Below are positions 3,296 through 39,634 of a DNA stretch of 39,634 nt, one piece after another. The DNA is taken from contig BOJX01000020.1 of the NCBI GenBank assembly GCA_016860685.1, forward strand, positions 1-39,634, given 5' to 3'. Under the pieces are notes generated by a model. That model did not search any database. It saw only the letters and a program-made list of their open reading frames with translations, and was not told where the DNA came from. The position numbers and the translations under genes are program-made. The first letter of the stretch is position 1; every line of letters starts with the position of its first letter. Origin of the DNA: Planctomycetota bacterium (GTDB lineage Bacteria; Planctomycetota; Phycisphaerae; UBA1845).

Positions 3296-3575
3296 GGCCA
3301 TGGTCTCCTTCGGGCAATCGGTTTCCGGACTCTCGCCGACGGCGAAGCCGTCGAGGCGCTGCCCTAAATTCTACGTCAATCGGGCGTCGGCTTCAATCGT
3401 GCCATGTGCTCCGCAATTCCCGCGGTTTTCAGCCCGTCCTGTCCGCGCTCCAGAGAGTCTCGGACAAAAAGCTCGTGTTGGAGAAACGGGCAAACTCATG
3501 TCACACCGGCAGATGACCGACGAGCCGACGAATCTATTCCGTTTCCGCAAGCTCTGGTATCAAGGAGATGTTCGT

Positions 3576-6500: not shown

Positions 6501-6595
6501 CGGGGGAGCATTCCGCCGAAAGCGCGAAGTGCAACGATTGCAGCGACAACGACTGCGACGGGTTGGTTGATGATGACGACCCGGATTGCGACTGA
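3576..6595 (+). pseudogene. Secreted sulfatase with DNRLRE-type C-terminal domain, broken by an 11-bp duplication and a nonsense codon
   Basis: Type I (formylglycine) sulfatase, alkaline-phosphatase superfamily. The start ATG at 3576 follows AAGGAG at 3562-3567; a hydrophobic export segment (FLIACAIVLAGAA) follows. The metal-binding FETDD and the sulfatase signature CCPSR (Cys104, the residue normally oxidised to formylglycine) are intact. A perfect tandem copy of ACACCAACTAC (4018-4028 and 4029-4039) shifts the frame. With one copy removed the protein reads TNYIPEAYYTVLIGKYMNG, then meets TAG at 4088-4090 where sulfatases usually have Tyr (TAC), then continues EELIAPGQ in frame to 6595. The metal site SDHGTMWGEHG, a Cys-rich insert, a putative Ig-like segment (PGQPYEVQFSTIGG), a DNRLRE/CBM96-like domain (about 5970-6490) and an acidic Cys tail follow. 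Repaired length is 1002 residues. Two independent lesions argue for a true pseudogene, although base-calling errors cannot be excluded. Confidence 0.88.
4018..4039 (+). repeat. Perfect 11-bp tandem duplication causing the sulfatase frameshift
   Basis: ACACCAACTAC occurs twice head to tail (4018-4028, 4029-4039). Eleven bases is not a multiple of three, so the duplication moves the reading frame. Deleting either copy joins the upstream and downstream sulfatase frames exactly, so this is the frame-breaking event. Confidence 0.93.
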
Positions 6596-25856: not shown

Positions 25857-26483
25857 TCATTCATCGGTCGAGCCTGGCGCGGTGCCCTTGGCGTCGCTCT
25901 TGGTCGGCCAGCCCGTCGCCTGATTGCCCTTCCAGACGCCCGCGTCATAGATGTCGCCGGACTCGATCACGCCGGATGCGGCGGTCACCTTCACGTCCAC
26001 GCGCAGCGTGCCGAGCGACAGCGTGATCGTCAGATCCTTCGCGGGCAGTCCGTACCGGTCGAACTCGATGAACTTCGACCCGTCGCTGACCGTCTCGATT
26101 GCCACGCGGTAGTCCGGCTCGTATCCCAGACAGAACACCGCGGGAATCTCAGGTTCGTACGTGTTGAGGAACCGCCACTTGGAGGACGACGCGCGATACC
26201 ACCACAGCGCGTGGAACTCCCTCGCGGCGTCGATGCCCAGCGCCGTCGGTGTCCCGAGTCGCAGCGCTTCGCCCTGGAGCAGTTTCATGTCGAGTCGCAG
26301 CTTGTGCGCCGCCCGGCGCAGCTTCTCACGCTGCACGACCTCGACCACGCGCGGCTTCGCGGCGACGGCCACGATCGCCAGAATGATCATGACCATCACC
26401 AGCTCGAGGTAGGTGAACGCTCGCCGGAACGGGTCGTGAGCCGTCCATCTCCCCTTCGTTCGCCGTCCTTGGGCGCCGATCAT
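25857..26483 (-). CDS. Type II secretion/type IV pilus minor pseudopilin, GspH/FimT-like
   Basis: Minor pseudopilin of 208 residues, last gene of the machinery cluster. The prepilin-type N-terminus is RRA|FTYLELVMVMIILAIV, with Glu at +5 and Ala, not the usual Gly, at -1; a prepilin peptidase tolerates Ala here. The leader of 22 residues (from MIGAQGRRTK) is long. The rest is a beta-rich globular domain (LRLDMKLLQGEALRLGTPTA is the typical GspH/FimT helix-end, then strands to VWKGNQATGWP). The ATG at 26483 overlaps the stop of the PilX-like gene (ATGA), so they are coupled. Type by similarity of the helix and length: GspH; a FimT label is equally possible. Confidence 0.82.
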   Translation of the reverse strand: MIGAQGRRTKGRWTAHDPFRRAFTYLELVMVMIILAIVAVAAKPRVVEVVQREKLRRAAHKLRLDMKLLQGEALRLGTPTALGIDAAREFHALWWYRASSSKWRFLNTYEPEIPAVFCLGYEPDYRVAIETVSDGSKFIEFDRYGLPAKDLTITLSLGTLRVDVKVTAASGVIESGDIYDAGVWKGNQATGWPTKSDAKGTAPGSTDE

Positions 26484-27730
26484 GACCCGATCTCCTGCGT
26501 GGTTCCGCTGACGACGTGGAGCAGCTTGTCGGTGAAGCCCGGCGAGAGTTGCTCCGCAAGCGACGTCTTCCCGTCACCGAGCACCACCCCGCCTCCGATC
26601 GTCACCATCCCCGCCTGAAGACACCCCGTGAAAAGCCAACCCGAGCCTCCGAGCGTCGTCGTCGCGCCCGAGACATAGACCAGCCCTGAAACATAAGGCG
26701 TAAACGTATCCGTCTTGTCCCCGTCGCCGTTGAAATCCAGATTCGCGGAAACCTCACTGAGCGACTCATTCGGTATGTTGAGGTTCACGGACGAGCCGGC
26801 GCCCGCCACGATGATCAGGCTCGGGTACGGCTGAGTCCCGGGGCGGATGATTGACGCCTTGTCCACCGTGATGGCGTTGGCCCCGCTGCCGGTGATGATC
26901 AGCGTGCCCTCGATGAGGCACTCCCGGATGTCAAGGTTCTTCGTTCCGAGGTCGATCCAATACATGCCGTAAGCGTTCACCGTCCCCGTCGTCGCGTACG
27001 TCGAAGTAAACTTGGCCTTTTCCAGCTTCCAGTTGCCGCCGCCGCTGCCCGTCCTGGAGATGGCGTTCGCCCGGCTGGTGTAATACGAAAGGTCCGGCGC
27101 GGGCATCGCGTAGGACGGAGCGTTGAGATACTGCGGCGTCAGGGTCGGCGTCACGACCGAACCCGCCGGCACGTCGAACGCCGCCGCCGCGCCGAGATTC
27201 ACCGTCACGCCCGTCCCGATGATGTTGCCCTTCGCGTAGATCGGACCGTTCACGGTGGCGAGCGAGTTAAAGGTGACGTTTCCGGACGCCGCGACCGTGT
27301 ACGCCATCGTGGCGTGGGGATACGGCCGGGCCGTCAGCGAAATCGTGCGCGTCTGCGTGTCAAGCTGGGAGGCGACGGTGATCCGGGCCGCGTCCGTGTC
27401 GTCGTCGAGCAGGTTTCCGTCCTCGTCGGAAAGGGTGACGTCGATGCGCCCGCCGCCGTCAGGGCGGAGCGTCTGTGTCGGAGTGGTGGTGAACGCGCTG
27501 CGCCAGTTCGTCGTCGCGTGGACCGTGGCCAGCGCCCACTCCGTCCCGGCGCGCCCAAGCTGCTGCGCCTGTCGGCGCGTCGTCAGCGTGGACTGCACGC
27601 GGCGGTTGGCGAACTGAAGACTGATCAGAGTGACTCCGGCGCCGGCCACCAGGATCGAAATCATCATCGTCGTGGCGTAAAGCATGACGCCGCGCCGCCG
27701 CACCCTGTTGTACGTGGGTCGATCTTTCAT
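26480..27730 (-). CDS. PilX/GspK-type minor pilin-like protein
   Basis: Membrane-anchored protein of 416 residues. The N-terminus RRRGVMLYATTMMISILVAG forms a hydrophobic helix with a prepilin-like R-R-G start but has no Glu at +5, as in PilX and GspK minor pilins, which sit at the pilus tip. No other pilin motif is present. The extracytoplasmic domain is large and rich in T/S/G, with beta-helix-like strings (NVTFNSLATVNGPIYAKGNI; LIEGTLIITGSGANAITVDK), and could be a solenoid exposed on the surface. Gene order (GspH-type, this, PilV-type, PilW-type) fits a minor-pilin operon. Starts at ATG 27730 with AAGAGA just upstream. The PilX label is by position and missing Glu; the extended domain is unusual for the family. 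Confidence 0.72.
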   Translation of the reverse strand: MKDRPTYNRVRRRGVMLYATTMMISILVAGAGVTLISLQFANRRVQSTLTTRRQAQQLGRAGTEWALATVHATTNWRSAFTTTPTQTLRPDGGGRIDVTLSDEDGNLLDDDTDAARITVASQLDTQTRTISLTARPYPHATMAYTVAASGNVTFNSLATVNGPIYAKGNIIGTGVTVNLGAAAAFDVPAGSVVTPTLTPQYLNAPSYAMPAPDLSYYTSRANAISRTGSGGGNWKLEKAKFTSTYATTGTVNAYGMYWIDLGTKNLDIRECLIEGTLIITGSGANAITVDKASIIRPGTQPYPSLIIVAGAGSSVNLNIPNESLSEVSANLDFNGDGDKTDTFTPYVSGLVYVSGATTTLGGSGWLFTGCLQAGMVTIGGGVVLGDGKTSLAEQLSPGFTDKLLHVVSGTTQEIGS

Positions 27731-27756
27731 TGATCTCTTATCTGTTGCCTGTCCCC

Positions 27757-28383
27757 CTACTCATACCCTTCATGCCGCGTCCGGTATCCCACGGCCGTCG
27801 CTCGCAGCTTACCGCTCACCAGCACTCGGACCTCGATCGCCTTCGCTGGTGTGCTCCCGTTTGACGCCACCGTCTTCATGTCTGAAAGCTGAACGTTCCA
27901 GACCCGGACCTCACGGCGGGTGTTCGCATATCCCGTCATCACCGTCCCGTCGAGGTTCTGCGGCGGAGATTCGACCCATCCGTGATAGTCGTCCACGTCA
28001 TCGTAGTCCTTGCGCGAGACCTCGCCCGCCCCGGTGCCGAAGCTCCCGGGAGCCAATTCAGGATCCTCGAACCCCCGGGTGAGAATCTCAGCGAGCAGAT
28101 CGCCGGCCAGATCCATCGCGGCGTGCCGCTCCTTCTCCGCGGCCGCGCCGCGAACGAACGACCCGTAAAGGTTCATCGAAGCCGTGACGCCCAGCCCGAG
28201 AATCAACGCCGAGATCGACGCTTCCAGGTACGAGAATCCCCGCCGCCCCAGCCTGCGCCGCCCCGCGGCGGCCGTGGCGGATCCGCCGCCGCGCTGTCGC
28301 GCGCGGGCGCCCGACGACAACCCGCTTCGCGCAGATCGTCGCCGGCGATCCGAAGTCGAAGCGTCAGCGCAGCGGCATGTCAT
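27757..28383 (-). CDS. PilV/GspI-type minor pseudopilin
   Basis: Minor pseudopilin of up to 208 residues. The prepilin cleavage region is RRG|FSYLEASISALILGLG, with Gly at -1 and Glu at +5. The start shown (ATG at 28383) gives an unusually long basic leader of about 49 residues (MTCRCADASTSDRRRR and on) and overlaps the upstream gene by 20 bp; a later start is possible, so the N-terminus is uncertain. After the helix come KERHAAMDLAGDLLAEILTR, the typical PilV/GspI second part, then a short beta domain. Type by similarity of position and length: PilV (T4P) or GspI (T2S). Probably in the tip complex with the PilW-type protein next to it. Confidence 0.8.
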   Translation of the reverse strand: MTCRCADASTSDRRRRSARSGLSSGARARQRGGGSATAAAGRRRLGRRGFSYLEASISALILGLGVTASMNLYGSFVRGAAAEKERHAAMDLAGDLLAEILTRGFEDPELAPGSFGTGAGEVSRKDYDDVDDYHGWVESPPQNLDGTVMTGYANTRREVRVWNVQLSDMKTVASNGSTPAKAIEVRVLVSGKLRATAVGYRTRHEGYE

Positions 28384-29497
28384 CGACGCTCATCCCCGAA
28401 AGAAGCGGTCGGCTCAGAAGATTGACCGCGGTGTCCGTCATGATCGTTTCACCGTTGTAGGGCCGCTCCAGATGCACATGCACGCTGCCGATCGTTCCGC
28501 TCTCGTACTTGCCGGTGCTTGTCGATCCGGATAACGTGAAGAAGCCGTAGGCGTAGAAGCGCAGATCCTTGGTCTGCTGGAACAGCGTCGGGTACCAGTT
28601 CGTCCCGCTGTTTAACGTGTACCGCATCCGCTGCTGCCCGTCGTTCCAGTCGACCGACAGCGTGTCGTTGTACGCCACCTCGCCCGTGTAAGCGGCGGTC
28701 CCGCGGCACACCACGGCCGCGGATTCGTTGTTGTTCAGCGTCACGTTGCCGAACTTGAACTCGACCCAGCCCCACGCCGTCGGCAGATCCGTCGCGCGGA
28801 CCACGATTTCCCGAAGAACCGTGCCGTCGGGGTTGACCGTGCCCGAGGCGACGCGCTGAAGCGAGACCTTGAATTCCCCGCTCGGCGTCCCGCCCGTGGA
28901 CCGCCGCAGGTAAAGAAACACGCTCGACACCGTGTAACTCACGGCGTCGGTGTAGCTGGGCGTGAACGTCTGCGCATACCACGTCGTCGTGCTGATGTTC
29001 ACCGACCGCGCCGTGTACGCCAGCGGATACCCGTCGTGATATGCCATGACGATGACGTCCGTCGTCGGGGTCGTCATCTCCTCGACCGGGTTTTCCAGCA
29101 GCGCCGACAGGGCGAAATTGTTGCACGATTCCAGAACGTTCAAAGACGTGCCGTTGAGCGTTCGGACGAGAGGATATCCCGCCGTCCCGGACCAGGAGTA
29201 CCGGATCGTGTCCGCCATCGCGTCGCCGGTGATGTCCGGGCAGGACAGGGTGACCGACCGCGAGGTCAGCTCGGTGATCGACGTCGCCATTCCGATCTCG
29301 TCATGCAGGCGCTGGAGCGTCAGCGCCAGGTGATTGTTCGCGTCGCTGCGCGCGATCGTCCGGTCCCCCCCCGTTGTGACCAGATACACCGTGGACGTGG
29401 TCGCCGCCAGGCACATCCCGCCGATCATCACCGCCGCTGACGTCTCCACGAGACTGAAGCCTCTTCGTCCCCGTGTTGTTCTTCGCTTGCGGTTCAT
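28364..29497 (-). CDS. PilW/GspJ-type minor pseudopilin
   Basis: Minor pseudopilin of 377 residues. The prepilin region is GRRG|FSLVETSAAVMIGGMC, with Gly at -1, Glu at +5 and a membrane helix. LQRLHDEIGMATSITEL is the amphipathic continuation seen in PilW/GspJ. The rest is a large Thr/Ser-rich beta domain (about residues 80-360), longer than a standard GspJ (about 200) and nearer PilW (about 330). The start at 29497 is chosen because GAGAGG lies 6 nt upstream; an ATG 15 codons further up is less likely. It overlaps the PilV-type start. Length and large surface domain favour a planctomycete-specific tip adhesin or cargo-binding role, but this is inference. Confidence 0.78.
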   Translation of the reverse strand: MNRKRRTTRGRRGFSLVETSAAVMIGGMCLAATTSTVYLVTTGGDRTIARSDANNHLALTLQRLHDEIGMATSITELTSRSVTLSCPDITGDAMADTIRYSWSGTAGYPLVRTLNGTSLNVLESCNNFALSALLENPVEEMTTPTTDVIVMAYHDGYPLAYTARSVNISTTTWYAQTFTPSYTDAVSYTVSSVFLYLRRSTGGTPSGEFKVSLQRVASGTVNPDGTVLREIVVRATDLPTAWGWVEFKFGNVTLNNNESAAVVCRGTAAYTGEVAYNDTLSVDWNDGQQRMRYTLNSGTNWYPTLFQQTKDLRFYAYGFFTLSGSTSTGKYESGTIGSVHVHLERPYNGETIMTDTAVNLLSRPLLSGMSVDDMPLR

Positions 29498-29579
29498 CGT
29501 TCGCCTCTCGGACCTTTGCCGGAGCGCCCCCGGTTTCCTCACGCACCGCGCGGATGCGACCCGCCCCCGCTCCGCCCTG

Positions 29580-30140
29580 CTACGGCGTCAGGAGCATGTC
29601 GTCCCGCTTGCCCGGATCGCTCACTCCGCCCTTGCCCGACAATTCCGCATCCGTAGAGTTGACCTTGAAATCCCCCGTGCTCAACACCGCGATCCACCCC
29701 GTCGACCCCGGCGATGGCCTTGCCGACGCCAGAGTCTGAATGACGGCGACCGTCGAAAGCTGGTTGAACGGATTCGCCGGAAACGGTTCGCGCAGGTAAG
29801 GCCCGTATATCCAGGCGCCGCCGTAGGTCGCCCGCGGCGCGCCGATCTCGTCCGTGAACTGCGTCAACTGCCGAATGAAAGCGCTCCCGTTGGGCGTGCC
29901 GTCCGCGGGGTTGTACCCCGGGTAGCGCCCGTGCTCCGCGTAGTAGTGATCGATCGCCTTCCGCACGTTCGTCAACGTCGCCTCCAGGGCGTGTGTCGTC
30001 GCGCCTTTCGCGCCGCGGGAGACCTGCGGCGCCGCCAGCGCCGCCATGATCCCCAGGATCACGACCACCATCACCAGCTCGACCAGCGTGAACGCTGACC
30101 GAGGCGCGCCGCGTCGCGGTTGCCGTGTATCCTGGAACAT
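29580..30140 (-). CDS. GspG-type pseudopilin (second copy)
   Basis: Pseudopilin of 186 residues, GspG-like. The N-terminus RSA|FTLVELVMVVVILGIM has Ala at -1 and Glu at +5. The helix continues into AALAAPQVSRGAKGATTH, and then NVRKAIDHYYAEHGRYPGY is the conserved alpha-helix/loop of GspG (typical YYAEHG..PG motif). Asp/Thr-rich region and a YGPYLREPFPANPFN segment match the GspG Ca/loop region. It is longer than classical GspG (about 140) by an extra C-terminal 40 residues. It starts at ATG 30140 with GGGTGA 3 nt upstream. It is about 250 bp downstream of a closely similar GspG copy, with a terminator between, so the two may be expressed at different levels. Confidence 0.87.
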   Translation of the reverse strand: MFQDTRQPRRGAPRSAFTLVELVMVVVILGIMAALAAPQVSRGAKGATTHALEATLTNVRKAIDHYYAEHGRYPGYNPADGTPNGSAFIRQLTQFTDEIGAPRATYGGAWIYGPYLREPFPANPFNQLSTVAVIQTLASARPSPGSTGWIAVLSTGDFKVNSTDAELSGKGGVSDPGKRDDMLLTP

Positions 30141-30247
30141 GTGTCACCCGGCGAAAGCCTAGGATATCCGTGGAAGCGAGGCGGGGAGTGCAGGAGTGGA
30201 CGTCCGGCCCTCGCCGCCCGACGCCCTGGCGCCGCTCCGATAAGACA

Positions 30248-30285
30248 AAGGTTCCGAAGCGCTCTGCCGAGCGCTTCGGAACCTT
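30248..30285 (-). terminator. Long perfect hairpin between the two GspG-type genes
   Basis: AAGGTTCCGAAGCGCT pairs perfectly with AGCGCTTCGGAACCTT (16 bp) around a 6-nt loop. On the minus strand it is followed by TTGTCTTAT, a weak T tract. It sits about 110 bp after the first GspG stop, so it should cut or attenuate transcription between the two genes; with the T tract imperfect, read-through is likely. Confidence 0.8.
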
Positions 30286-30395
30286 GTGAATTCGGACGCA
30301 TGTCGGTTGCGCCGCTGAGGGGCGCTTGATCGGACGTAAGTCCGGGACAACCCGCCGCCGCGTGCAAGCGCGGTGAAGGACGCTCCCCGTCGCGA

Positions 30396-30899
30396 TCAGT
30401 ACGTGTTGTACTGCTTGCTGTTCTCGTCCGCGTCGTCGGTGTTGGCGATGAAGTCGCCGGTCGCGTAGTTGTAGACCCAGCCCTTCGTCGTCTGTGCCTC
30501 GTCCACCGTCGGACCCGTGTTCGCCAGGATCACGCCTGTTGCGGTCTTGTTCGGACCGACCTGCACTGGCGGAAACGACGTGCCGCGCAGATAGGGTCCG
30601 TAGATGTGGACGCCGGCCGTCGTGCCCACGTTGCCGTTGATGTCCGTGCGCTTCGTCAACTGATTGATTAGCGTCGCCTCGGTTCCGTCGGCGCCGGGAT
30701 ACGAGTTCCCGTGCTCCGCGTAGTAGAGGTCGATCGCGTTACGGATCGCCGCCAGGCTGCTTCGCAGCGCCGAGTCGCCGGCGCCACGCGATCCGCGGCT
30801 GATCCGCGGGACGGCGATGGCCGCGATGATCCCCAGAATCACCACCACGATCACAAGCTCGACCAGGCTGAACGCCTTACGATGGTTCCCGATCCTCAT
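30396..30899 (-). CDS. GspG-type pseudopilin (first copy, probable major)
   Basis: Major-type pseudopilin of 167 residues. The prepilin region is HRKA|FSLVELVIVVVILGII, with Ala at -1 and Glu at +5; the leader is short (MRIGNHRKA), as in major GspG. AVPRISRGSRGAGDSALRS, then AIRNAIDLYYAEHGNSYPG match GspG. A loop VHIYGPYLRGTSFPP and a C-terminal stretch ATGDFIANTDDADENS follow (acidic, maybe calcium-binding, as in GspG). The ATG at 30899 has AGGGA 7 nt upstream. Upstream genes encode the inner-membrane assembly platform; the strong hairpin after it favours this copy being the abundant subunit (inference). Confidence 0.88.
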   Translation of the reverse strand: MRIGNHRKAFSLVELVIVVVILGIIAAIAVPRISRGSRGAGDSALRSSLAAIRNAIDLYYAEHGNSYPGADGTEATLINQLTKRTDINGNVGTTAGVHIYGPYLRGTSFPPVQVGPNKTATGVILANTGPTVDEAQTTKGWVYNYATGDFIANTDDADENSKQYNTY

Positions 30900-31054
30900 G
30901 ATTCCCTGTCCCTTTTTGCGCCCGATGATCCGTGCCGCGACCGCGCGGCCCGCCTCTCCTGCATTGCTTGGGTATCGTCGCTTACCGACGACCAGTTAAA
31001 TTCTCAGCGTCCCGTAAACCCCTCATTTCGCTCGCCGAAGGACCGTTCCGCCGG

Positions 31055-31621
31055 TTACGGGGCGTCGCTCGAACCGTCCCGGACGTTCGCCAGCGGTTCC
31101 GGTCTCTTGAGCGTCACCACTTCCTCCCCGCGGCGGAAAAGCACGCCGTCCGGACCGATGAACGCCGCTTCGAATCCGTCCAGCTTCGCGCCGACGGTCA
31201 GCGTGCGTCCGCTGACAAACGCCGTCGCCTTGCCGATGCCTACCAGCGTCCCCTCGAGACGATGCTTCTTGATGAACTCCTCCACCGGCAACAGGGGCGT
31301 TCCGTCCTCGCCGATTTTCGGCGCCGTCGCGATCGGGGACGCAAGGCCGCGCTCCTCGGGACGGGCGAACATGTCCGACTGCGCATCGATCGACTCGTCA
31401 AACGGCGGCAGGCTGCGCGGAAAGGGGATCAGCAGAACCGCGGAGGATCCTGCAACTTGCGCCCGGACAGCGTCGGTTCGAGAACCATCGGCGCCCATCG
31501 CCGTGCCCGCCAACGCCAGTTCCGGGTTGGACGCGCCCCCGAGGAACCGGTCCGCCGCCAGCGCGACGACGCCGACCGCGATCACCGCGCCGTAAATCTT
31601 GTATTTGCGGTTTGCCGCCAT
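31055..31621 (-). CDS. GspC/PilP-like inner-membrane protein (tentative)
   Basis: Single-pass protein of 188 residues. A basic N-terminus (MAANRKYK) is followed by one membrane helix (IYGAVIAVGVVALAADRFL), then a periplasmic linker and a small beta domain (EGTLVGIGKATAFVSGRTLT, VGAKLDGFEAAFIGPDGVLF, RRGEEVVTLKR). The pattern, with the domain repeating strands as in the HR/PilP domain, and its place after PilM, PilN and PilO suggest the GspC/PilP function: linking the platform to the outer-membrane secretin. Sequence similarity is weak, so only position supports the label. It lies 52 bp downstream of PilO on the same strand. No secretin gene is in the window for it to bind. Confidence 0.55.
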   Translation of the reverse strand: MAANRKYKIYGAVIAVGVVALAADRFLGGASNPELALAGTAMGADGSRTDAVRAQVAGSSAVLLIPFPRSLPPFDESIDAQSDMFARPEERGLASPIATAPKIGEDGTPLLPVEEFIKKHRLEGTLVGIGKATAFVSGRTLTVGAKLDGFEAAFIGPDGVLFRRGEEVVTLKRPEPLANVRDGSSDAP

Positions 31622-31673
31622 GTTTCCAGCACTTGCGCCGTCTTACGCGCCGCCGCCTACCTGCCCACGCCGC

Positions 31674-32249
31674 TCATGCACCAGGGGGCTTCGGTGGCGC
31701 AACGCCCGGCGCCGCCGAATACATGCTGATTGCGAACGCCAGCGTCCGCCCCCGCGCATCCAGGTCCGGGCCCACCGGCCGCGCCAGCGACAGATATCCG
31801 ATGTCCAGCCAGTGTTCGTCCGACTCGATCCCCTTCAGAAACGTCAGCACGTCCTTCGTCGTCCCGCGCGCCTCGAACGTGAACCGCCGCTCAACGATCC
31901 CCGGATACTCCCGGTCCGGCAGCGGAAGAAAATTCGTGATGCGGACGCCGCTCGCCCGCGCAAGCTCCGCCAACCGGGCCTGACATTGCGGGATGGGCGC
32001 GTCCGCCGGAAGGCGCTCGGCCTGCGCCAGTGTCGCGCGCAGCGACTCCAGCACCCGTCGCTGCTCCTGAACCTGCGCCTCGACGGCGGCCGCGTCGCGG
32101 TGCATCTGACCGATCGAAGCCTTCAGCTCGTCCATCCGCGCGGCCTTGCCCATCGGTCCCTTCGAATACCAGATCAGCCCCGCAGCGAGCAGCAGGCAAA
32201 GTCCCGCGCCGCTGACATCGAGCCACATTGTCGGATGCTTCTGCCGCAT
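31674..32249 (-). CDS. pilO: PilO/GspM-like inner-membrane assembly protein
   Basis: Single-pass inner-membrane protein of 191 residues, PilO-type. TM helix WLDVSGAGLCLLLAAGLIWY near the N-terminus, then a coiled-coil segment (MDELKASIGQMHRDAAAVEA, VQEQRRVLESLR) and a ferredoxin-like periplasmic domain (LAELARASGVRITNFLPLPD; KDVLTFLKGIESDEHWLDIG; FAISMYSAAPG). It pairs with PilN and PilM in the inner-membrane alignment complex. The start at 32249 is chosen because GAGG lies 9 nt upstream; a GTG at 32285 would overlap the PilN stop by 11 nt. Length is near the family norm. Confidence 0.82.
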   Translation of the reverse strand: MRQKHPTMWLDVSGAGLCLLLAAGLIWYSKGPMGKAARMDELKASIGQMHRDAAAVEAQVQEQRRVLESLRATLAQAERLPADAPIPQCQARLAELARASGVRITNFLPLPDREYPGIVERRFTFEARGTTKDVLTFLKGIESDEHWLDIGYLSLARPVGPDLDARGRTLAFAISMYSAAPGVAPPKPPGA

Positions 32250-32274
32250 GCCTGTCCGCCTCGCGTCGCCGCGA

Positions 32275-32961
32275 CTACCACTCACACACGATCAGGAAGC
32301 GGTAAGCTTCGCCTGCCCCCGGCGCGCCGGACCCGGGCCCCGCGCTCCCCGACGTCGATCGTCCGAGCACGACCGAAGAAAACACGCCCGTGCCCGCCAG
32401 GTTCGCCGCGTAGACCTGGATCGACTCGTACGTCCGCGACATCCCCTGAAGGTTCAGCTTGCGCGGCGCCTCGATCGTCACCGCCCCGGACGCGCCCCCC
32501 GCCTGCGCCGGCAAGGATGACGCGCCTCCCGTCGCGGCCGAAGCGGGGGCCGGTGTCGCCGGAAACGCCGTCTTCGGAGCAGCCGTCGCGGTGGGGAGGG
32601 CGGGATCCGTCGCGATCGACTCGAGCCAGACGTCCTGCGGCATCGCGCGCCCGATCAGCGCCAGCAACGCCGACCACTCCCGCTTCTGACGGAAGGTCGT
32701 CGCACGCTCGATTTCGTTGTTGATCGCCTCGATCTGGGTCAGCGCTTCCGTGTGCTCGCGGCGCAGACGCGACAGCGCTCCCGATAGCGCCAACTGCTCT
32801 CCCTCCAGCGACGACAGACGCGCCGCCTGCACCGTCGCCAGCACGGCCGGAACGCTCCCCGCCCCCGCAACCCCCGAAACCGCCATCGCCCATGCCAGCA
32901 TGCGCCGCCGCACCGCCTGAGCCTGACGGATCGACATCGGAATCAGGTTCACGCCGATCAT
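32275..32961 (-). CDS. pilN: PilN/GspL C-terminal-type inner-membrane assembly protein
   Basis: Single-pass protein of 228 residues. The N-terminal VNLIP (residues 4-8) is the PilN motif that binds the PilM groove. Basic IRQAQAVRRRML precedes a membrane helix (AWAMAVSGVAGAGSVPAVLA), then a coiled-coil (LEGEQLALSGALSRLRREH, TEALTQIEAINNEIERAT) and a small periplasmic fold (LLALIGRAMPQDVWLESIAT). An Ala/Pro/Gly-rich insert, about residues 130-165 (PTATAAPKTAFPATPAPAS), interrupts it and looks disordered; this is unusual for PilN. It overlaps PilM by 4 nt (ATGA), so translational coupling fits the binding partners. Confidence 0.86.
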   Translation of the reverse strand: MIGVNLIPMSIRQAQAVRRRMLAWAMAVSGVAGAGSVPAVLATVQAARLSSLEGEQLALSGALSRLRREHTEALTQIEAINNEIERATTFRQKREWSALLALIGRAMPQDVWLESIATDPALPTATAAPKTAFPATPAPASAATGGASSLPAQAGGASGAVTIEAPRKLNLQGMSRTYESIQVYAANLAGTGVFSSVVLGRSTSGSAGPGSGAPGAGEAYRFLIVCEW

Positions 32962-34184
32962 GTCTCATCCCCCCGCAACGCCAGTCCGATCGCCGTCGCC
33001 AGCCGCTCGAGCGACGCGACCGACGTCGTGATGCGTGACGACGAGGCGCCGGACCGCTGGATCGGCTTAAGCCGCGACGCCGGCGCCCCCGCCGCATCCC
33101 CCAACCGTTGCACCGCGATCCCCAGTTGCGACGAGAGAAACTCGGGCAGACCCCGCATTCCCGCGCCGCCGCCGACCAGAATCACATCCCGCGCCTTCGA
33201 CGACGGGTAGCAGCTCAGCACATACGAGAAGGATCGCTCAATCTCCGTCACCAGCCGTGTCAGCGGCAGATGAAGCACGCCGAAGATTACCTCCGCAAGC
33301 TCCCGGCGACCTCCTTCGGATCCGGCGGGCGGCAGGACAGGCTCCCGCGGCGCAGCGCCGGGTTCGGAAGTCCCGGTGGCGCCGCTCCGCCGGACGCCTC
33401 GCCGACTTGGCTCGATCCCGACGTCGCACTTATGAATCTCTGCGGCTTCGGCGGAGATGCGCAGCTCTTCCGCGATCCGCTCCGTCCAGCCGCGACCGCC
33501 GTCGCTGACCGCCCGCGCAAGCACCGGCGTCTGATCCACGCAAAGCACGAGTCGCGTTTGCCTCGCGCCCAGATCCAGCACCCCCCAGATCGCGCCGGGA
33601 CGCGCCCCCACCACCAGCCCCGCCGTCCGCACGACGGCGCACGCAGACGCATCGACCGTCTCACAATCCAGGTGCGCCTCGCGGCAGACGCTCAGCAACC
33701 GATCGACCGTGGCGCGCGACGCCGCCACGCCGACCGCGGTCGGAGATCGTCCCACCCCTTTCGGCAACGCCCAGTAGGCTGTCTCCAGCTCACCGTGTTC
33801 CTTGCCGGCCAGGCGTTGAATCTCAACGTGCGCGATCTGCGCATACTCGTTCGCCGTGTCGGCGCTGAAGGGCGGAAGCTCCAGCGGGTGCAGCTCGACG
33901 TCCGGAGACGCCAGCCCGATCGCCACCCGTCGCCCGCGCGCCGCCGATCGCTCCAGGCATTCCTGAAGGTGCTCCGGCAGCGCGAGGTCCGTCACGGTCG
34001 GCTGCGTCGCCGCGCCGGGCTTCTTCGCTTCTCCGCTCGGCACAGATGCGGGCGCCGCATAACGCCCCTCGGTGAAGGCCCCCAGCCGGAAGTCCGCGCG
34101 CACGCGCTCCAGTTGCGCCACGCGCGTCCCATCCGCGCCGATGTCCAGCCCGACCCGCGTTGTCTTCGACCTCAGACCCAGCAC
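32958..34184 (-). CDS. pilM: PilM-type actin-like ATPase of the assembly platform
   Basis: Cytosolic actin/FtsA-fold ATPase of 408 residues, the PilM family (type IV pilus) equivalent to the cytosolic half of GspL. Phosphate loops: VGLDIGADGTRVAQLER (about residues 12-28) and GVLDLGARQTRLVL (about 210); ILVGGGAGMRGLPEFL near the C-terminus is the adenosine-binding loop. Asp in the first loop is kept. An insertion of about 45 residues of Gly/Arg/Pro-rich sequence (SRRGVRRSGATGTSEPGAAP) splits the second actin-like lobe around residue 250, which is unusual. It overlaps PilN by 4 nt. The gene lies 72 bp downstream of the PilC/GspF gene. Confidence 0.88.
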   Translation of the reverse strand: MLGLRSKTTRVGLDIGADGTRVAQLERVRADFRLGAFTEGRYAAPASVPSGEAKKPGAATQPTVTDLALPEHLQECLERSAARGRRVAIGLASPDVELHPLELPPFSADTANEYAQIAHVEIQRLAGKEHGELETAYWALPKGVGRSPTAVGVAASRATVDRLLSVCREAHLDCETVDASACAVVRTAGLVVGARPGAIWGVLDLGARQTRLVLCVDQTPVLARAVSDGGRGWTERIAEELRISAEAAEIHKCDVGIEPSRRGVRRSGATGTSEPGAAPREPVLPPAGSEGGRRELAEVIFGVLHLPLTRLVTEIERSFSYVLSCYPSSKARDVILVGGGAGMRGLPEFLSSQLGIAVQRLGDAAGAPASRLKPIQRSGASSSRITTSVASLERLATAIGLALRGDET

Positions 34185-34256
34185 GTTGATCTCTTCCGCC
34201 GCCGCAACTTGGACCCGCCCCGACGCGCCGCCGATCGTTCGGGTTGCGCCGTCTCG

Positions 34257-35465
34257 TCAGCCCAGCGCCGCCGTCACGTCGAACAACGGCAGGAACAACG
34301 AAATCGCCACGCCGCCGACCACCACCCCCATCACCACCAGAATCATCGGCTCAACCAGGCGCGTCATTGCGGCGATCAATTCGGCGTTTTCCTCCTCCAG
34401 AATGTCCGCGCAGTAGGAGATCGACGGTCCCAGCGCTCCGTTCTCCTCGCCGGTCTGGATCGAGTACGCCAGCGAAGGTTCGATAAAGTCGCTCCGCAGC
34501 AGCACCGAGCTGATCCGGTCGCCGGACGTCAACGCCTCGACGATGTCGTCGAAAAGGCGGCGGAATCTGCGGTTGCCGGTGATCTCGCGGCTCAGCTCCA
34601 GCGCATCCAGCACCCCGACGCGGCACTCGATCAACGTCCCCAGCGTCCGGTAAATCCGCGCCTGAATCAGCCGGCTCGTCAGACGCTTCATCAGCGGAAT
34701 CTCCGTCTGAACGTTGACCAGAACGCGCCGACCCGGCTTCGACCCCAGCAGCAGAAACAACCCGACTCCCAGCACGATCGCCGCGCCCGCCGGGATCGCC
34801 CAGTATTGCTCCAGCCATCCCGACACGTTCAGCAGAAACTGCGTGCTCCACGGAATCTCCACGCCGATCGTCTTGAACATCCCCGCGAAGCGCGGAACCA
34901 CGAACATCATCATCCCGCACACCACGTTGATCGACATGACAAGCAGCACCAGCGGATACGTCATCGCGCCGAGAATCTTGTTCCGCAGCGCCCGCCGACG
35001 CACCAGGATCGACGCCAGCCGGTCCATCATCGCCGGAAGCGTCGCGCTCGCCTCGCCCGCCGCCACCACCGCCCGGTACGCGGGGTCGAACGTCTCCGGA
35101 AACTTCCGCATCGCGTCCGCCAGCGGCAGACCGTCCTCCAGATCGTTGATGAGGGATCGGATCATCGCCTCATGCGCCGGCTTCTTGAGTTGGCGGCGGA
35201 TCACCTGCAGCGCGGGAACCAGCGCGCTGCCCGCCTTCAGCAGGATCGCCAGTTGCCGCGTGAGGAACACCAGCGGCTTCAGCGGCAGCTTCAGCGTCGC
35301 CGGCGCTCGCGCCGTCGTTGCCTTGGCCGCCTCAACTTCGCTGATCTTCTTCACGAACAATCCGCGACGCCGGAGACGCTCGATCGCCTCCGCAGGGTCC
35401 GTTGCGTCGATGACGTCCGCGACGGCGCTTCCCGCCGCGTCCACCGCTTCGTAACTGAGGTTCAT
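34257..35465 (-). CDS. pilC: PilC/GspF-type inner-membrane platform protein
   Basis: Polytopic inner-membrane protein of 402 residues at the core of the assembly platform. Two similar GspF domains are seen: the first from about residue 65 (FLTRQLAILLKAGSALVPAL, then LPLADAMRKFPETFDPAYRA), the second from about 265 (IPLMKRLTSRLIQARIYRTL; LSREITGNRRFRRLFDDIVE). Each is followed by a membrane region (GAMTYPLVLLVMSINVVCGM, TRLVEPMILVVMGVVVGGVA). An N-terminal cytosolic domain, YEAVDAAGSAVADVIDATDP, has the standard form. Length and layout match the family. It reads on from the assembly ATPase gene (106 bp gap) and towards PilM. Confidence 0.93.
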   Translation of the reverse strand: MNLSYEAVDAAGSAVADVIDATDPAEAIERLRRRGLFVKKISEVEAAKATTARAPATLKLPLKPLVFLTRQLAILLKAGSALVPALQVIRRQLKKPAHEAMIRSLINDLEDGLPLADAMRKFPETFDPAYRAVVAAGEASATLPAMMDRLASILVRRRALRNKILGAMTYPLVLLVMSINVVCGMMMFVVPRFAGMFKTIGVEIPWSTQFLLNVSGWLEQYWAIPAGAAIVLGVGLFLLLGSKPGRRVLVNVQTEIPLMKRLTSRLIQARIYRTLGTLIECRVGVLDALELSREITGNRRFRRLFDDIVEALTSGDRISSVLLRSDFIEPSLAYSIQTGEENGALGPSISYCADILEEENAELIAAMTRLVEPMILVVMGVVVGGVAISLFLPLFDVTAALG

Positions 35466-35571: not shown

Positions 35572-37335
35572 CTACGCCGTCCCCACCGGTTCCTCCTGCT
35601 CCAGACCCGTCCCCGTCGGATCCCCCACCTCCACCGATTCCGATCGCGTGACCCGCAGCACTTCCTCCAGCGTCGACGAGCCGTCCTCCACCAGATCCAG
35701 CGCCTTCTGACGCAGCGACCGCCAGCCGGACTGCGCGAGATACTCGCGGATCTGGCCCTCATTCGCGCGCTCATGAACCAGTCGTCGAAGTTCCGGGTCC
35801 ATCAGCATGACTTCGTAGATGCCGACGCGCCCCTTGAAACCGGAGTTGTGGCACTCCCGGCATCCCTCCCCCTTCTGAAACAGCTCGCTCGTGCGATGCC
35901 CCCACCCCACGCTCGCCAGCAGCGGCGCCGGAGGGTAATACGACGTGCGGCAGGACGGGCAGATCTTCCGCGCCAGACGCTGCGCGATGAACCCCAGCAC
36001 CGACGACGCGATCAGGTAAGGCTCGATCTTCATGTCAAACAGACGCGCGATCCCGCCGGGACAGTCGTTCGTGTGCAGCGTCGAAAGCACAAGGTGCCCC
36101 GTCAGCGCGGACTGCACCGCCACCCGCGCCGTCTCCTCGTCGCGCATCTCGCCCACCATGATGATGTCCGGATCCTGACGCAGGATCGACCGGAGCGCCC
36201 GCGCAAACGTCAGCCCGACCTGGTCGTTCACCTGCACCTGATTGATCAGCGGAATCTGATACTCGACCGGATCCTCGATCGTAACGATGTTGTTCGCCTC
36301 CTCGCGCAGAAGATCGAGGCAGGAGTACAACGTCGTCGTCTTGCCGCTGCCCGTCGGTCCGGTGACCAGCATCAATCCGTAAGGACAGCGGATCATCGCC
36401 TCCACGGCGGCTCGGTCCTCCTCGCGCATGCCCAGCGCCCCGAGGTCGAAACTGAGGTTCCCCCGGTCCAGCAGGCGGATCACAATCTTCTCCCCCAGAA
36501 TCGTCGGCATGCTCGACACGCGCAGGTCGATCTCGCGCCCGTCCGCCATGATATGCACGCGCCCCTCCTGAGGCAGGCGCTTCTCCGAGATGTCCATCCG
36601 GCCGATGACCTTGATCCGCGAAACGATCGCCGCGTGCAGCCCCTTCGGCGGGCTCAGCAGCTCACGCAGCTTGCCGTCAATCCGGTACCGGATGTGCGTC
36701 GCGTTCCGGTCCGGCTCGATGTGAATGTCGCTCGCGCCGTCGCGCAGCGCCGTCAGCACCGCGAGATTCACGAGGTTCACCACCGGGCTGCCGTCCACCA
36801 TCCGGTCGAGATCCGTGACCGGACCCTCGTCGATCGCCTCGTGCTCCGTGATGAGGACTTCGCTCTCCTCGATCGACGCGAGGAACGTGTCCACCGTCAC
36901 CTCGCCCGTCAGGTACTTGTTCTGAAACTCCTCGAGGTTCTCCTCCAGCACGAGGATCGGGCGGATGTCGCACCGCGTCAGTTGCCGCAGGCGGTCCTGC
37001 GTCGGCAGCGACTGCGGCTCCACCATCGCCACCGTCAGCACGTCGCGCACCCGGAACATCGGAAGCACGCGCAGCCGCCGCGCCTCCTCCTTCGAGATGC
37101 ACTTCGCCGCCTTCGGATCGATCAGCCCGTGACGCAGCACGCACCCCTTCACCCCCAGCCGCCGCGAGAGCGTCGTCACCAACGCCGACGTCGAGATCGC
37201 TCCCGTCGACACCAGCGTGCTGCCCAGCCGTCCGCCCGAAGACGCCTGCTTCGCCAGTGCAGCCGCGAGTTGCTCAGAGGTAATCAACCCCTCCGCGATG
37301 AGCTGCTCGCCGAGTTTGAAGGCTTGTTCGATCAT
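35572..37335 (-). CDS. pilB: PilB/GspE assembly ATPase with MshEN-like N-terminal domain
   Basis: Hexameric secretion/pilus-extension ATPase of 587 residues. The N-terminus has two MshEN-type segments (KLGEQLIAEGLITSEQLAAA and RLGSTLVSTGAISTSALVTT, about residues 7-60), resembling the cyclic di-GMP-binding motif RLGxxLVxxG. The ATPase core has Walker A GPTGSGKT (326-333), the Asp box VTIEDPVEY (351-359), Walker B around 388-402 (DPDIIMVGEMRDEET), and the His box GHLVLSTLHTND. The tetracysteine zinc site is CPSC (459-462) and CREC (492-495). All catalytic elements are intact. The C-terminal tail (EVGDPTGTGLEQEEPVG) is an extension. First gene of the machinery cluster after STAS; the 183-bp upstream gap (with a REP-like hairpin) likely holds its promoter. 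Confidence 0.96.
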   Translation of the reverse strand: MIEQAFKLGEQLIAEGLITSEQLAAALAKQASSGGRLGSTLVSTGAISTSALVTTLSRRLGVKGCVLRHGLIDPKAAKCISKEEARRLRVLPMFRVRDVLTVAMVEPQSLPTQDRLRQLTRCDIRPILVLEENLEEFQNKYLTGEVTVDTFLASIEESEVLITEHEAIDEGPVTDLDRMVDGSPVVNLVNLAVLTALRDGASDIHIEPDRNATHIRYRIDGKLRELLSPPKGLHAAIVSRIKVIGRMDISEKRLPQEGRVHIMADGREIDLRVSSMPTILGEKIVIRLLDRGNLSFDLGALGMREEDRAAVEAMIRCPYGLMLVTGPTGSGKTTTLYSCLDLLREEANNIVTIEDPVEYQIPLINQVQVNDQVGLTFARALRSILRQDPDIIMVGEMRDEETARVAVQSALTGHLVLSTLHTNDCPGGIARLFDMKIEPYLIASSVLGFIAQRLARKICPSCRTSYYPPAPLLASVGWGHRTSELFQKGEGCRECHNSGFKGRVGIYEVMLMDPELRRLVHERANEGQIREYLAQSGWRSLRQKALDLVEDGSSTLEEVLRVTRSESVEVGDPTGTGLEQEEPVGTA

Positions 37336-37518: not shown

Positions 37519-37854
37519 TCAAAGAAAGCTCTTCACCGCGTCCTCGACCTTCTCGAAGAACTCGAACCGCTCCGCCAGCTCCGTCAGTTGCAGCACTTCC
37601 CGCACCGTCGCCGGAACGCACGCCAGCCGAAGCCGAACGCTGCGGTCCTCGAGCACATCCGCCACGTCCACCAGCCCTTCCAGCGCCGCGCTGTCCACGT
37701 AAGGCACGTCCTGAAGGTTCAACACAAGACGAACGTTCGCGCTCTGCGCCGTGCGCTTCACATCAGCCGCGGCGCGCGCTGCGTCGTCCTCGATCAAGGC
37801 CCCCTTGACCGAAACTACCGTGACGCTTCCGACCTGTTGCTGCTCCAGTTTCAT
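37519..37854 (-). CDS. STAS-domain protein, anti-sigma-factor-antagonist type
   Basis: Cytosolic single STAS domain of 111 residues (SpoIIAA/RsbV fold). In this family a Ser is phosphorylated by a partner kinase to control binding of an anti-sigma factor or other regulator. The conserved site is visible: VPYVDSAALEGLVDVADVL, with Ser55 as the likely phosphosite. Flanking strands (VTVVSVKGALIEDDAARAAA; VRLVLNLQD) and the last helix (RFEFFEKVEDAVKSFL) match. Start ATG at 37854. No kinase or anti-sigma gene is near; instead the neighbours are a GAF/GGDEF-like protein and an HD-GYP protein, so it may act in a surface-signalling switch (inference). Confidence 0.93.
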   Translation of the reverse strand: MKLEQQQVGSVTVVSVKGALIEDDAARAAADVKRTAQSANVRLVLNLQDVPYVDSAALEGLVDVADVLEDRSVRLRLACVPATVREVLQLTELAERFEFFEKVEDAVKSFL

Positions 37855-37878: not shown

Positions 37879-39234
37879 TCAGATCGCTCCACTCCCCACC
37901 AGCGCCTCCTCCCGCGATCGCAGGTCGCTGGCCAGGACCGACCCGCTCAGCCGCGCTTCCTGACACAGCGCCACCGCCTGCCGCAGCATGTCGGAGAACC
38001 GCGGCTGACCCGTCCCGCTCCCCACCACCCCGCAGCGCACCTGCACCTCTGTCCCCGACGTCCGCGCCTCGGCGCACGCCGCGCGCACCCGCTCCAGCAA
38101 CTGCTCAAGAATCAGCGACGCCAGAGAGGAATCCACCCGCCGCAGAAGAAGCATCATGCGGCCCTCGTCGAACCGCCCGAACCGGTCGTCGCCGCGCAAT
38201 CGTTCACGCACGACGTGGCTCACCGTCCGCACGACTTCGTCCGCAGCATCCCAGTCTCCGGCGTCGTTAAACTGCCGCAACGGCTCGATCGACAGCACCG
38301 CCAGCGCGCAAGGTTCTCCGTCGCGCTTCGCCGCATCGAGCGAACACTCCGCCTGCGTGAAGAAGGCCTCCCGCGTGAGCGCCCCGGAGACCGGATCATG
38401 CGTCGCCGCCGACCGCCCCCGACAAACTTCCAGCAACGTGATCCAGAAGTGTGCGATGAGCAGCTCCACCGCCCGGTAATGCTGAAAATCCTGACGCTCA
38501 TGCCCGTCAAACGCCCCGACGGTCACCAGTCCGATCTTCCGCGCGCCCTGCGTCACCGCGAAGCACCACGCCAGCGGCCGGCCCGAGCGACGCGCCAGGT
38601 CGTCCACCAGCGCCCCGTGCGTCGCGTCCCCTTCCAGATAGGAACGCCCGGTCGTCGCCACGTGCCCGACGATCCCCTCCCGCGCGCTGGGCGTCTCGTT
38701 CTCGACGAAGGGATGTTCCTCACGGATCGGCGCCAGCTCCGCCCCTTCGCTGAGAATGCGGTAAAACCGCACGTGCGACGTGCGGCAGCAGTCGTAAAGG
38801 ACGCCGCGCGCGAACTCCCCGAACCCGGGCCAGGGATCCGGGTCGTTGCGGTGCGCTTCCAGCCAGTCGTCAAACGTTTCCATCGCGCGAGTCAGAGCGG
38901 ATAACGCGCCGATCGACGAACCCCAGGAGGACAGCAGTTGCCCGGAAGAAACGCGCGCCGCAGGCGGCGCATCGCCCCGCCCGCCGCCGATCATCACCCG
39001 AACGTCCCCGCCCCACGCGCCAACCGCCGTGATCGCCAGCGCGCCGGTCAGAAGCGCCGTGACGTTCCACCCTCCCTGCCACGCCACGGCCCCCTCGCGC
39101 GCCTGCACCAGCACGATCCAGAACAAACCGCACAGGACGCCCAGCGCCGTTCCGCGCGCCCGACCCAGCAGGCGTCCGCCCAGCCCCGCGGCGAGTACGA
39201 TCGGCAACCAGAGTAACACCCACTCATGAATCAT
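37879..39234 (-). CDS. Membrane protein with GAF and degenerate GGDEF domains
   Basis: Signalling protein of 451 residues. Two or three N-terminal hydrophobic helices (WVLLWLPIVLAAGLGGRLLG; ALGVLCGLFWIVLV; LLTGALAITAVGAW) anchor it. A GAF-like sensor spans about residues 130-270 (YRILSEGAELAPIREEHPFV; AREGIVGHVATTGRSYLEGD). The C-terminus has the GGDEF fold (THDPVSGALTREAFFTQAEC, LAVLSIEPLRQFNDAGDWDA), but the signature GGDEF position reads RFDEGRMM and the first metal Asp is replaced (SIEPL). So it should not make cyclic di-GMP, although it may bind it or GTP. Start at 39234 is chosen because GAGGAG and AAGGTG lie upstream; an ATG 19 codons earlier is less likely. It lies 22 bp downstream of the HD-GYP gene, so it forms an operon with it. 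Confidence 0.85.
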   Translation of the reverse strand: MIHEWVLLWLPIVLAAGLGGRLLGRARGTALGVLCGLFWIVLVQAREGAVAWQGGWNVTALLTGALAITAVGAWGGDVRVMIGGGRGDAPPAARVSSGQLLSSWGSSIGALSALTRAMETFDDWLEAHRNDPDPWPGFGEFARGVLYDCCRTSHVRFYRILSEGAELAPIREEHPFVENETPSAREGIVGHVATTGRSYLEGDATHGALVDDLARRSGRPLAWCFAVTQGARKIGLVTVGAFDGHERQDFQHYRAVELLIAHFWITLLEVCRGRSAATHDPVSGALTREAFFTQAECSLDAAKRDGEPCALAVLSIEPLRQFNDAGDWDAADEVVRTVSHVVRERLRGDDRFGRFDEGRMMLLLRRVDSSLASLILEQLLERVRAACAEARTSGTEVQVRCGVVGSGTGQPRFSDMLRQAVALCQEARLSGSVLASDLRSREEALVGSGAI

Positions 39235-39256
39235 CGTCACCTTGCTCCTCGACCGC

Positions 39257-39634
39257 TCAGACGCCGCCGCCGGAGGGGGATCCCGGCGCAACCGCGCCGC
39301 TGGGGCCGCGGTCGCCGTCGACCCTCGACGGAACGTCTCCGCCGCCCTCCTGTGATCCGTAGCGCGTCATCGCCTCCCACGCTTCCGGCTTGCCCTGAAA
39401 CTCACGCCGGATCATCCGGATGAACACGCGCCCCAGCTCCGGGTCCACGACCGTCCCGGACTCCTCCGCGATGATCGACAGCGCCTTCTCCCAGTCGAAG
39501 GCCTTGCGGTAAGCGCGTGAACTCGTCAGCGCGTCGAAGATGTCCGCAACCTGGATGATCCGTGCCTGAAGCGGAATCCCCTCCCCCGCAAGCCCGTCGG
39601 GATAACCCTTCCCGTCGTAACGCTCGTGATGATG
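39257..39634 (-). CDS. HD-GYP-domain protein, C-terminal part (cut by window edge)
   Basis: The frame runs off the right edge; about 125 residues are visible. It contains the HD-GYP hallmark [20 protein letters not shown], then [20 protein letters not shown] and [20 protein letters not shown], the usual downstream helices. HD-GYP enzymes hydrolyse cyclic di-GMP to pGpG or GMP through a bimetal site; the HHE residues shown form part of it, but the N-terminal HD is outside. The C-terminus is an unrelated disordered Gly/Pro/Ser-rich tail ([17 protein letters not shown]). First gene seen of the STAS/GAF signalling set, on the same strand as the machinery, and probably co-transcribed with it. Confidence 0.93.

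What the first reader, a model, noticed from the sequence alone, without database searches (positions are those of the whole stretch)
25857..35465. Hybrid T2SS/T4P platform with enlarged minor pseudopilins and no secretin
PilM, N, O and C (T4P-type) sit beside two GspG-type pseudopilins and GspH/PilX/PilV/PilW minor ones. The PilW-type (377 residues) and PilX-type (416 residues) have long Thr/Ser-rich or beta-solenoid-like domains. Secretin, prepilin peptidase and PilT are missing here. This may be a planctomycete-specific surface or secretion machine with a large tip; function is unknown.
Basis: partly seen in the sequence, partly recalled or inferred. Interest (0 to 1): 0.6.

Follow-up and report, generated by a model that had tools for sequence, protein, structure and literature searches.

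The report
c-di-GMP-linked adhesive pilus gene cassette
This is one complete inner-membrane half of a type IV pilus-like machine, with sugar-binding-like modules on its presumed tip and its own signalling genes, found across one class of Planctomycetota; the outer-membrane pore and processing enzyme that looked missing are elsewhere in the genome.

Summary
The genes are real and largely as described, but the reading was too narrow and one half is wrong. In relatives a histidine kinase and response regulator head the same operon.

'No secretin, no peptidase' is mainly an assembly and linkage effect. The host genome carries the last 99 residues of a 619-aa secretin (98% identical to a congener) and the last 63 residues of PilD (97%), each cut by a contig end. 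In five other genomes (four genera) the same secretin sits beside the cassette. PilT-family ATPases are present.

The cassette appears restricted to one class (Phycisphaerae-like). X is a GspK-type tip pilin (large, no Glu5) with a solenoid-like domain. W carries a beta-sandwich related to a phage baseplate protein, replaced by PA14 in one relative. Best reading: a c-di-GMP-controlled adhesive T4P-like filament with a modular tip, using a secretin inherited from a second pilus locus. New variant of a known kind.

The parts
39257..39634 (-). 3' end of HD-GYP protein ([12 protein letters not shown] motif), cut by the contig end; 421-441 aa in congeners
   Evidence: Pfam HD_5 1.5e-21; complete orthologue in L055; synteny
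37879..39291 (-). membrane protein with degenerate GGDEF domain (RGDD-RFGRF-DEGRM): RxxD I-site kept, catalytic motif lost; likely c-di-GMP receptor, PelD-like in plan
   Evidence: Pfam GGDEF 4.2e-12; motif comparison in 15 cassettes
37519..37854 (-). STAS (anti-sigma-antagonist type) protein with conserved D-S motif
   Evidence: Pfam STAS 9.5e-17; Ser conserved in 12 of 12 aligned
35572..37335 (-). PilB/GspE extension ATPase with N-terminal MshEN c-di-GMP-type domain
   Evidence: Pfam T2SSE 1.2e-137, MshEN 2.3e-11; NF053729 above cut-off and PilB 583 vs GspE 571 bits; nearest solved structures are PilB
34257..35465 (-). PilC/GspF inner-membrane platform protein
   Evidence: Pfam T2SSF 1.7e-48; GspF 304 bits, PilC 243 bits
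32958..34184 (-). PilM
   Evidence: Pfam PilM_2 2.5e-13; TIGR01175 3.9e-18
32275..32961 (-). PilN
   Evidence: Pfam PilN 7.7e-08
31674..32285 (-). PilO/GspM-like
   Evidence: Pfam PilO 0.0067, below cut-off; GspM/XpsM 4.8e-06, below cut-off
31055..31621 (-). PilP/GspC/GspB-like periplasmic protein, expected to dock on the secretin
   Evidence: no family for the window copy; T2SSB (best 4e-05) in 5 of 13 family members, T2SSC weakly in 1; conserved position after PilO
30396..30899 (-). G1, GspG-like (major) prepilin, A|FSLVE cleavage site
   Evidence: N_methyl 2.5e-07; TIGR01710 7.3e-09, below cut-off
29580..30140 (-). G2, GspG-like prepilin, A|FTLVE cleavage site
   Evidence: N_methyl 2.3e-05; TIGR01710 5.5e-11, below cut-off
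28364..29497 (-). W, PilW/GspJ-type minor prepilin (377 aa) with an inserted beta-sandwich domain at about residues 160-280
   Evidence: N_methyl 0.0033; AF2 strands, pLDDT 62-80 in that block; family profile matches phage baseplate chain 9euf_0, 3.8e-06; PA14 in the relative L071
27757..28383 (-). V, PilV/GspI-type minor prepilin (start codon uncertain)
   Evidence: TIGR02523 0.0012, below cut-off; G|FSYLE site
26480..27730 (-). X, GspK/PilX-type prepilin (416 aa), RRRG|VMLYA site without Glu5, large C-terminal solenoid-like domain
   Evidence: no Pfam/NCBIfam hit itself; family alignment; hydrophobic or small residue at position 5 wherever the signature is readable; Bactofilin-type matches in 6 of 15 members
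25857..26483 (-). H, GspH/FimU-type minor prepilin, A|FTYLE site
   Evidence: Pfam GspH 0.013 and N_methyl 0.018, both below cut-off

Best explanation
The operon encodes the inner-membrane motor, alignment complex and pilins of a type IV pilus-like filament. PilB polymerises G1/G2 on the PilC platform. PilM/N/O and the PilP-like protein link the motor to a ~619-aa secretin encoded elsewhere, and PilD (also elsewhere) processes the prepilins. H, V, W and X form the tip, with GspK-like X (no Glu5) as the initiating subunit, so the large X and W domains are carried outward first. The W beta-sandwich (PA14 in one relative) is probably a glycan- or surface-binding module, making the filament an attachment organelle. 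The upstream kinase, response regulator, HD-GYP phosphodiesterase, degenerate GGDEF receptor and STAS protein, together with the MshEN domain of PilB, make extension depend on c-di-GMP. Shown: gene content, order, conservation, motifs, presence of secretin and PilD. Inferred: filament rather than secretion, adhesion, use of this secretin, direction of the c-di-GMP effect.
For: Gene order HK-RR-HDGYP-GGDEF-STAS-B-C-M-N-O-P-G-W-V-X conserved in 14 of 18 related genomes read, with the secretin + TPR lipoprotein pair beside it in five genomes of four genera. Own-genome secretin and PilD ends at contig edges. PilM and PilN are separate proteins, as in T4P. PilB is closest to solved PilBs. The MshEN region has two 24-residue motifs with the 5-residue spacer described for MshE. 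RxxD is kept in 14 of 15 and the catalytic GGDEF motif lost in 15 of 15, the arrangement that makes PelD a receptor. X lacks Glu5, is large and lies near the 3' end of the pilin cluster, as GspK-family tip pilins do. The W insert matches a phage baseplate protein by sequence profile and by fold search, and is PA14 in L071. Grafted lectin modules on tip pilins are a known device.
Against: PilC, PilO and the G pilins score as well or better with T2SS than with T4P models. No PilT gene lies in the cassette. A large pilin without Glu5 is also the mark of a T2SS pseudopilus that does not leave the cell. The W model is of modest confidence (mean pLDDT 53.8) and its other fold matches are to general jelly-roll folds. 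The X model (42.9) is not usable. Two contact residues of the MshEN motif differ in this PilB (Lys for Arg in motif I, Arg for Gln at the end of motif II). No expression or binding data exist.
Confidence: 0.62

Rival explanations
1. A type II secretion-like machine: a short pseudopilus with a bulky, non-exiting tip pushes folded proteins through the secretin.
For: PilC best matches GspF, PilO best matches GspM/XpsM, G1/G2 best match GspG. The PilP-like family matches T2SSB in 5 of 13 members. X has the GspK features: large, no Glu5.
Against: PilM and PilN are separate, not a GspL-type fusion. PilB is nearer to solved PilBs than to GspE. The genome already has a distinct T2SS-like locus with GspJ/K-like proteins and its own giant secretin on C51. 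A sandwich or PA14 module on W suits surface binding.
Confidence: 0.22
2. A competence-type (DNA-uptake) or other retractile uptake pilus, the large tip domains capturing DNA or polysaccharide.
For: PilT-family ATPases exist elsewhere in the genome. A role other than motility has been suggested for pilus-like structures of planctomycetes (PMC8303584).
Against: No competence gene in the cassette or conserved beside it. c-di-GMP control is more usual for attachment pili.
Confidence: 0.1
3. One reading: a machine that works without secretin and peptidase.
For: Neither gene lies on the window contig.
Against: Truncated secretin and PilD at contig ends in the same genome; complete copies in all three congeners; secretin adjacent to the cassette in four other genera.
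Confidence: 0.03

Closest known systems
Type IVa pilus (PilMNOP-B-C-Q, FimU/PilV/W/X)
   Same: Separate PilM and PilN, PilO- and PilP-like proteins, PilB-type ATPase, four minor pilins, secretin and PilD in the genome
   Different: Major pilins are GspG-like; X lacks Glu5 and W carries a grafted sandwich; no PilT or PilY1 found in the cassette; secretin shared with or taken from another locus; own kinase/HD-GYP/GGDEF/STAS genes
MSHA pilus (MshE)
   Same: ATPase with MshEN c-di-GMP-type domain; one large locus; peptidase supplied from elsewhere (PMC6668835)
   Different: No mshM-type gene in the cassette; PilM present; regulators are in the operon; tip proteins unrelated
Type II secretion system (GspG, H, I, J, K, F, M)
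   Same: GspG-like pilins, GspF-like PilC, GspM-like PilO, GspK-like X
   Different: No GspL-type fusion; GspG models not met at cut-off; a separate T2SS-like locus exists on C51
Modular tip pilins (Streptococcus sanguinis PilB, PilC; PMC9934059)
   Same: Extra adhesive domain grafted on a minor pilin at the tip
   Different: The graft here is a phage-baseplate-like sandwich (PA14 in one relative) on PilW/GspJ, with a solenoid-like domain on X; S. sanguinis is monoderm
PelD c-di-GMP receptor (PMC7112168)
   Same: Membrane protein with degenerate GGDEF and kept RxxD I-site
   Different: Sits in a pilus operon, not with Pel polysaccharide genes; only the generic GGDEF model matches

Membership tests
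Type IVa pilus | PilB, PilC, PilM, PilN, PilO set | tested here: met
   PilO below cut-off but conserved in position
Type IVa pilus | PilQ-type secretin with PilP | tested here: met
   secretin 3' end in own genome, complete in congeners; PilP-like by family and position
Type IVa pilus | prepilin peptidase with N-terminal CxxC domain | tested here: met
   own fragment on C84; complete PilD in congeners
Type IVa pilus | PilA-type major pilin by full-length model | tested here: not met
   G1 and G2 match GspG best, all below curated cut-offs
Type IVa pilus | retraction ATPase PilT | tested here: inconclusive
   PilT-family ATPases on C64, C23, C74, none in the cassette
Type II secretion system | GspG major pseudopilin at curated cut-off | tested here: not met
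   42.6 and 35.8 bits against 88.85
Type II secretion system | GspL-type fusion of PilM- and PilN-like parts | tested here: not met
   two separate ORFs
Type II secretion system | GspK-type pseudopilin: large, no Glu5 | tested here: met
   X alignment and N-termini; but no GspK profile match
MSHA pilus | mandatory mshA, E, G, L, M (Denise et al. 2019) | tested here: not met
   no mshM-type ORF among the cassette ORFs
MshEN c-di-GMP-binding ATPases | two 24-residue motifs with 5-residue spacer | tested here: met
   NF053729 58.4 bits against 38; motif with two changed contact residues
MshEN c-di-GMP-binding ATPases | measured c-di-GMP binding | not testable with these tools
   needs protein
PelD-like receptors | lost catalytic GGDEF motif with intact RxxD I-site | tested here: met
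   15 of 15 and 14 of 15 cassettes
PelD-like receptors | PelD-specific family model | tested here: not met
   only generic GGDEF and diguanylate-cyclase models matched
Modular (grafted-lectin) pilins | prepilin signature plus recognised carbohydrate-binding fold | tested here: inconclusive
   prepilin signature and sandwich in W; PA14 only in the relative L071

The most novel reading that the evidence does not exclude
The cassette is a distinct T4P-like lineage of one planctomycete class with a built-in c-di-GMP checkpoint (kinase, HD-GYP, PelD-like receptor and STAS feeding an MshEN-bearing PilB), exchangeable tip binding modules, and a secretin retained from a second pilus operon that has otherwise been lost.
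Probability: 0.4. Interest if true: 0.6.

Novelty: new variant of a known kind. Interest (0 to 1): 0.42.

Why it matters
If right, it names the likely attachment pilus of a large, mostly uncultured class of Planctomycetota and gives a testable regulatory wiring (c-di-GMP, STAS) and tip ligands. It also shows a secretin surviving the loss of its own pilus platform, which bears on how the parts of the type IV filament superfamily are shared and exchanged.

Tried and rejected
A conserved-block search with the X alignment failed for lack of conserved stretches; the PilB alignment was used instead. PF00263 and PF01478 searches of the own genome alone would have supported 'missing secretin and PilD'; congener proteins as queries found the truncated ends. 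The own-genome secretin of C51 was considered as partner and set aside: it is 1635 aa with 11 N-domains, has its own T2SS-like locus, and occurs together with the 619-aa class in relatives. The C4 secretin lies with Tad-type genes and the short A24 peptidase; that peptidase is not the PilD looked for. Structure of X: mean pLDDT 42.9 with three sequences, so no fold search was made. Only loci of the kinds named by the structure tool were used for folding, which kept the alignments shallow. Absence of a detectable X in 56 of 100 relatives is not absence of the cassette: PilB shows it in family-f1 genomes without a detectable X.

Full report
WHAT IS THERE. The window is an entire contig (C20, 39,634 b) of a 437-contig, 90%-complete draft genome. 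From the right end leftward, all on the minus strand, lie: the end of an HD-GYP gene, a degenerate GGDEF gene, STAS, PilB, PilC, PilM, PilN, PilO/GspM, a PilP/GspC-like gene, G1, G2, W, V, X, H. Third-position GC is 0.78-0.87 in the 14 cassette ORFs examined.

CONSERVATION. X has relatives in 44 of 100 genomes, most of the same family or order. Twenty-kb stretches around X were read in 18 of them; 14 show the same order from HD-GYP to X (a few small genes not called), preceded by a PAS/HisKA kinase and a one-domain response regulator where the stretch reaches that far. In G070, G037 and G044 only the pilin genes were seen at the X locus. PilB gives a cleaner marker: cassette PilBs score at least 996 bits with the family profile in 15 of 26 genomes tested, and one more (G013) is cut by a contig end; ten of ten genomes of family f8 have none above 633 bits. 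In a phylum-wide sample of 196 genomes, 8 of 14 from other orders of the same class score 856-951 bits, while none of 181 from other classes exceeds 753. The cassette therefore looks restricted to one class; named relatives include Phycisphaerales and Phycisphaeraceae.

THE 'MISSING' PARTS. A Pfam search of the own genome finds three secretins (C51, C4, C29) and one short A24 peptidase, none obviously of this system. The 19 relatives searched each show one more class, mostly in frames of 580-800 codons. With the congener's 619-aa secretin as query, the own genome shows its last 99 residues at 98% identity at base 1 of contig C69, within 5.3 kb of collinear DNA at 95%. With the congener's 475-aa PilD as query, the last 63 residues appear at 97% identity at base 3 of contig C84. 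Both genes are thus present and cut by contig ends. In five genomes of four other genera the secretin and a TPR lipoprotein lie beside the cassette (G055, G067, G079, G073, G087).

WHOSE SECRETIN. In congener G001 the same secretin lies inside a second pilus operon (pilin, M, N, O, P, secretin, TPR, STAS, B, T, C). In G002 and G003 the same locus keeps only a pilin piece, a 121-aa ORF, secretin and TPR. In f8, which lacks the cassette, the secretin is always within 10 kb of another PilB (10 of 10). In G002 and G003 (read directly), and by position in G012, G019, G022, G029, G033, G034, G039 and G045, no listed PilB lies on the secretin's contig although the cassette is present. The simplest reading is a secretin inherited from the second pilus and kept for the cassette. 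This is inference.

TIP PROTEINS. X has a prepilin cleavage site with no Glu at position 5 wherever the N-terminus is readable, is the largest pilin and lies near the 3' end of the cluster, as described for GspK-family first subunits (PMC5207764). Its C-terminal part matches Bactofilin-type models in 6 of 15 members (best 0.0014) and an ice-binding-like adhesive model in one, so 'beta-solenoid-like' is plausible but not shown; the AF2 model is too poor. The W insert is predicted as beta-strands with pLDDT 62-80. The family profile matches a phage phi812 baseplate chain at 3.8e-06, and the fold search independently puts the same baseplate first. In L071 the insert is PA14 at 3.7e-28. Different binding-type modules at one site suggest an exchangeable ligand-binding position, as in modular pilins (PMC9934059).

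REGULATION. PilB carries the MshEN motif pair with the 5-residue spacer (KLGEQLIAEGLITSEQLAAALAKQ-ASSGG-RLGSTLVSTGAISTSALVTTLSRR), with two changed contact residues. The GGDEF protein has lost the catalytic motif in 15 of 15 cassettes but keeps RxxD in 14 of 15, the arrangement by which PelD binds c-di-GMP (PMC7112168). The HD-GYP fragment in the window keeps [12 protein letters not shown], and 13 of 13 relatives keep the HD dyad. STAS keeps its serine in 12 of 12. The direction and wiring are not known.

LITERATURE. No paper in the held library describes this cassette. Planctopirus limnophila has three non-essential pilQ-like genes (PMC11958385). The library lacks most subscription journals, so prior description cannot be excluded.

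VERDICT. A T4P-like adhesive filament with c-di-GMP control is the best reading; a T2SS-like machine is the main rival because several parts score nearer to T2SS models. The finding's headline 'no secretin' is refuted in its plain form. What remains is a class-restricted variant of the type IV filament superfamily.

Noticed in passing
G000 C51 (L013:3239-19746, L052): Separate T2SS-like locus with GspJ/K/L-like genes, a 1635-aa secretin bearing 11 Secretin_N domains and a 3037-aa companion that reads as a string of similar repeats (by eye). Secretin frames of about 1250-1900 codons occur in most relatives and of about 4200-4900 codons in others. It could be a very long periplasmic channel.
   Followed up: partly
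L134:4780-16656 versus L132:8382-12128 and L133:7984-11715: Second pilus operon complete in one congener and reduced to pilin piece, 121-aa ORF, secretin and TPR lipoprotein in two others.
   Followed up: partly
L065:4513-7140: Two tandem X-type genes in the cassette of G072.
   Followed up: no
L147, L148, L151, L146 upstream of STAS or PilB: In more distant relatives a PAS/HisKA histidine kinase lies directly upstream of STAS or PilB, where HD-GYP and GGDEF sit in the window's order.
   Followed up: partly
window:3273-6595: Sulfatase-like reading frame split into two ORFs (3273-4067 and 4151-6595), possibly a frameshift or sequencing error; judged by eye only.
   Followed up: no
L135:8186-9613, L137:8359-9924: PilD of this group is unusually long (475-521 aa) and scores at or below the Pfam A24 cut-off, so routine searches can miss it.
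   Followed up: partly
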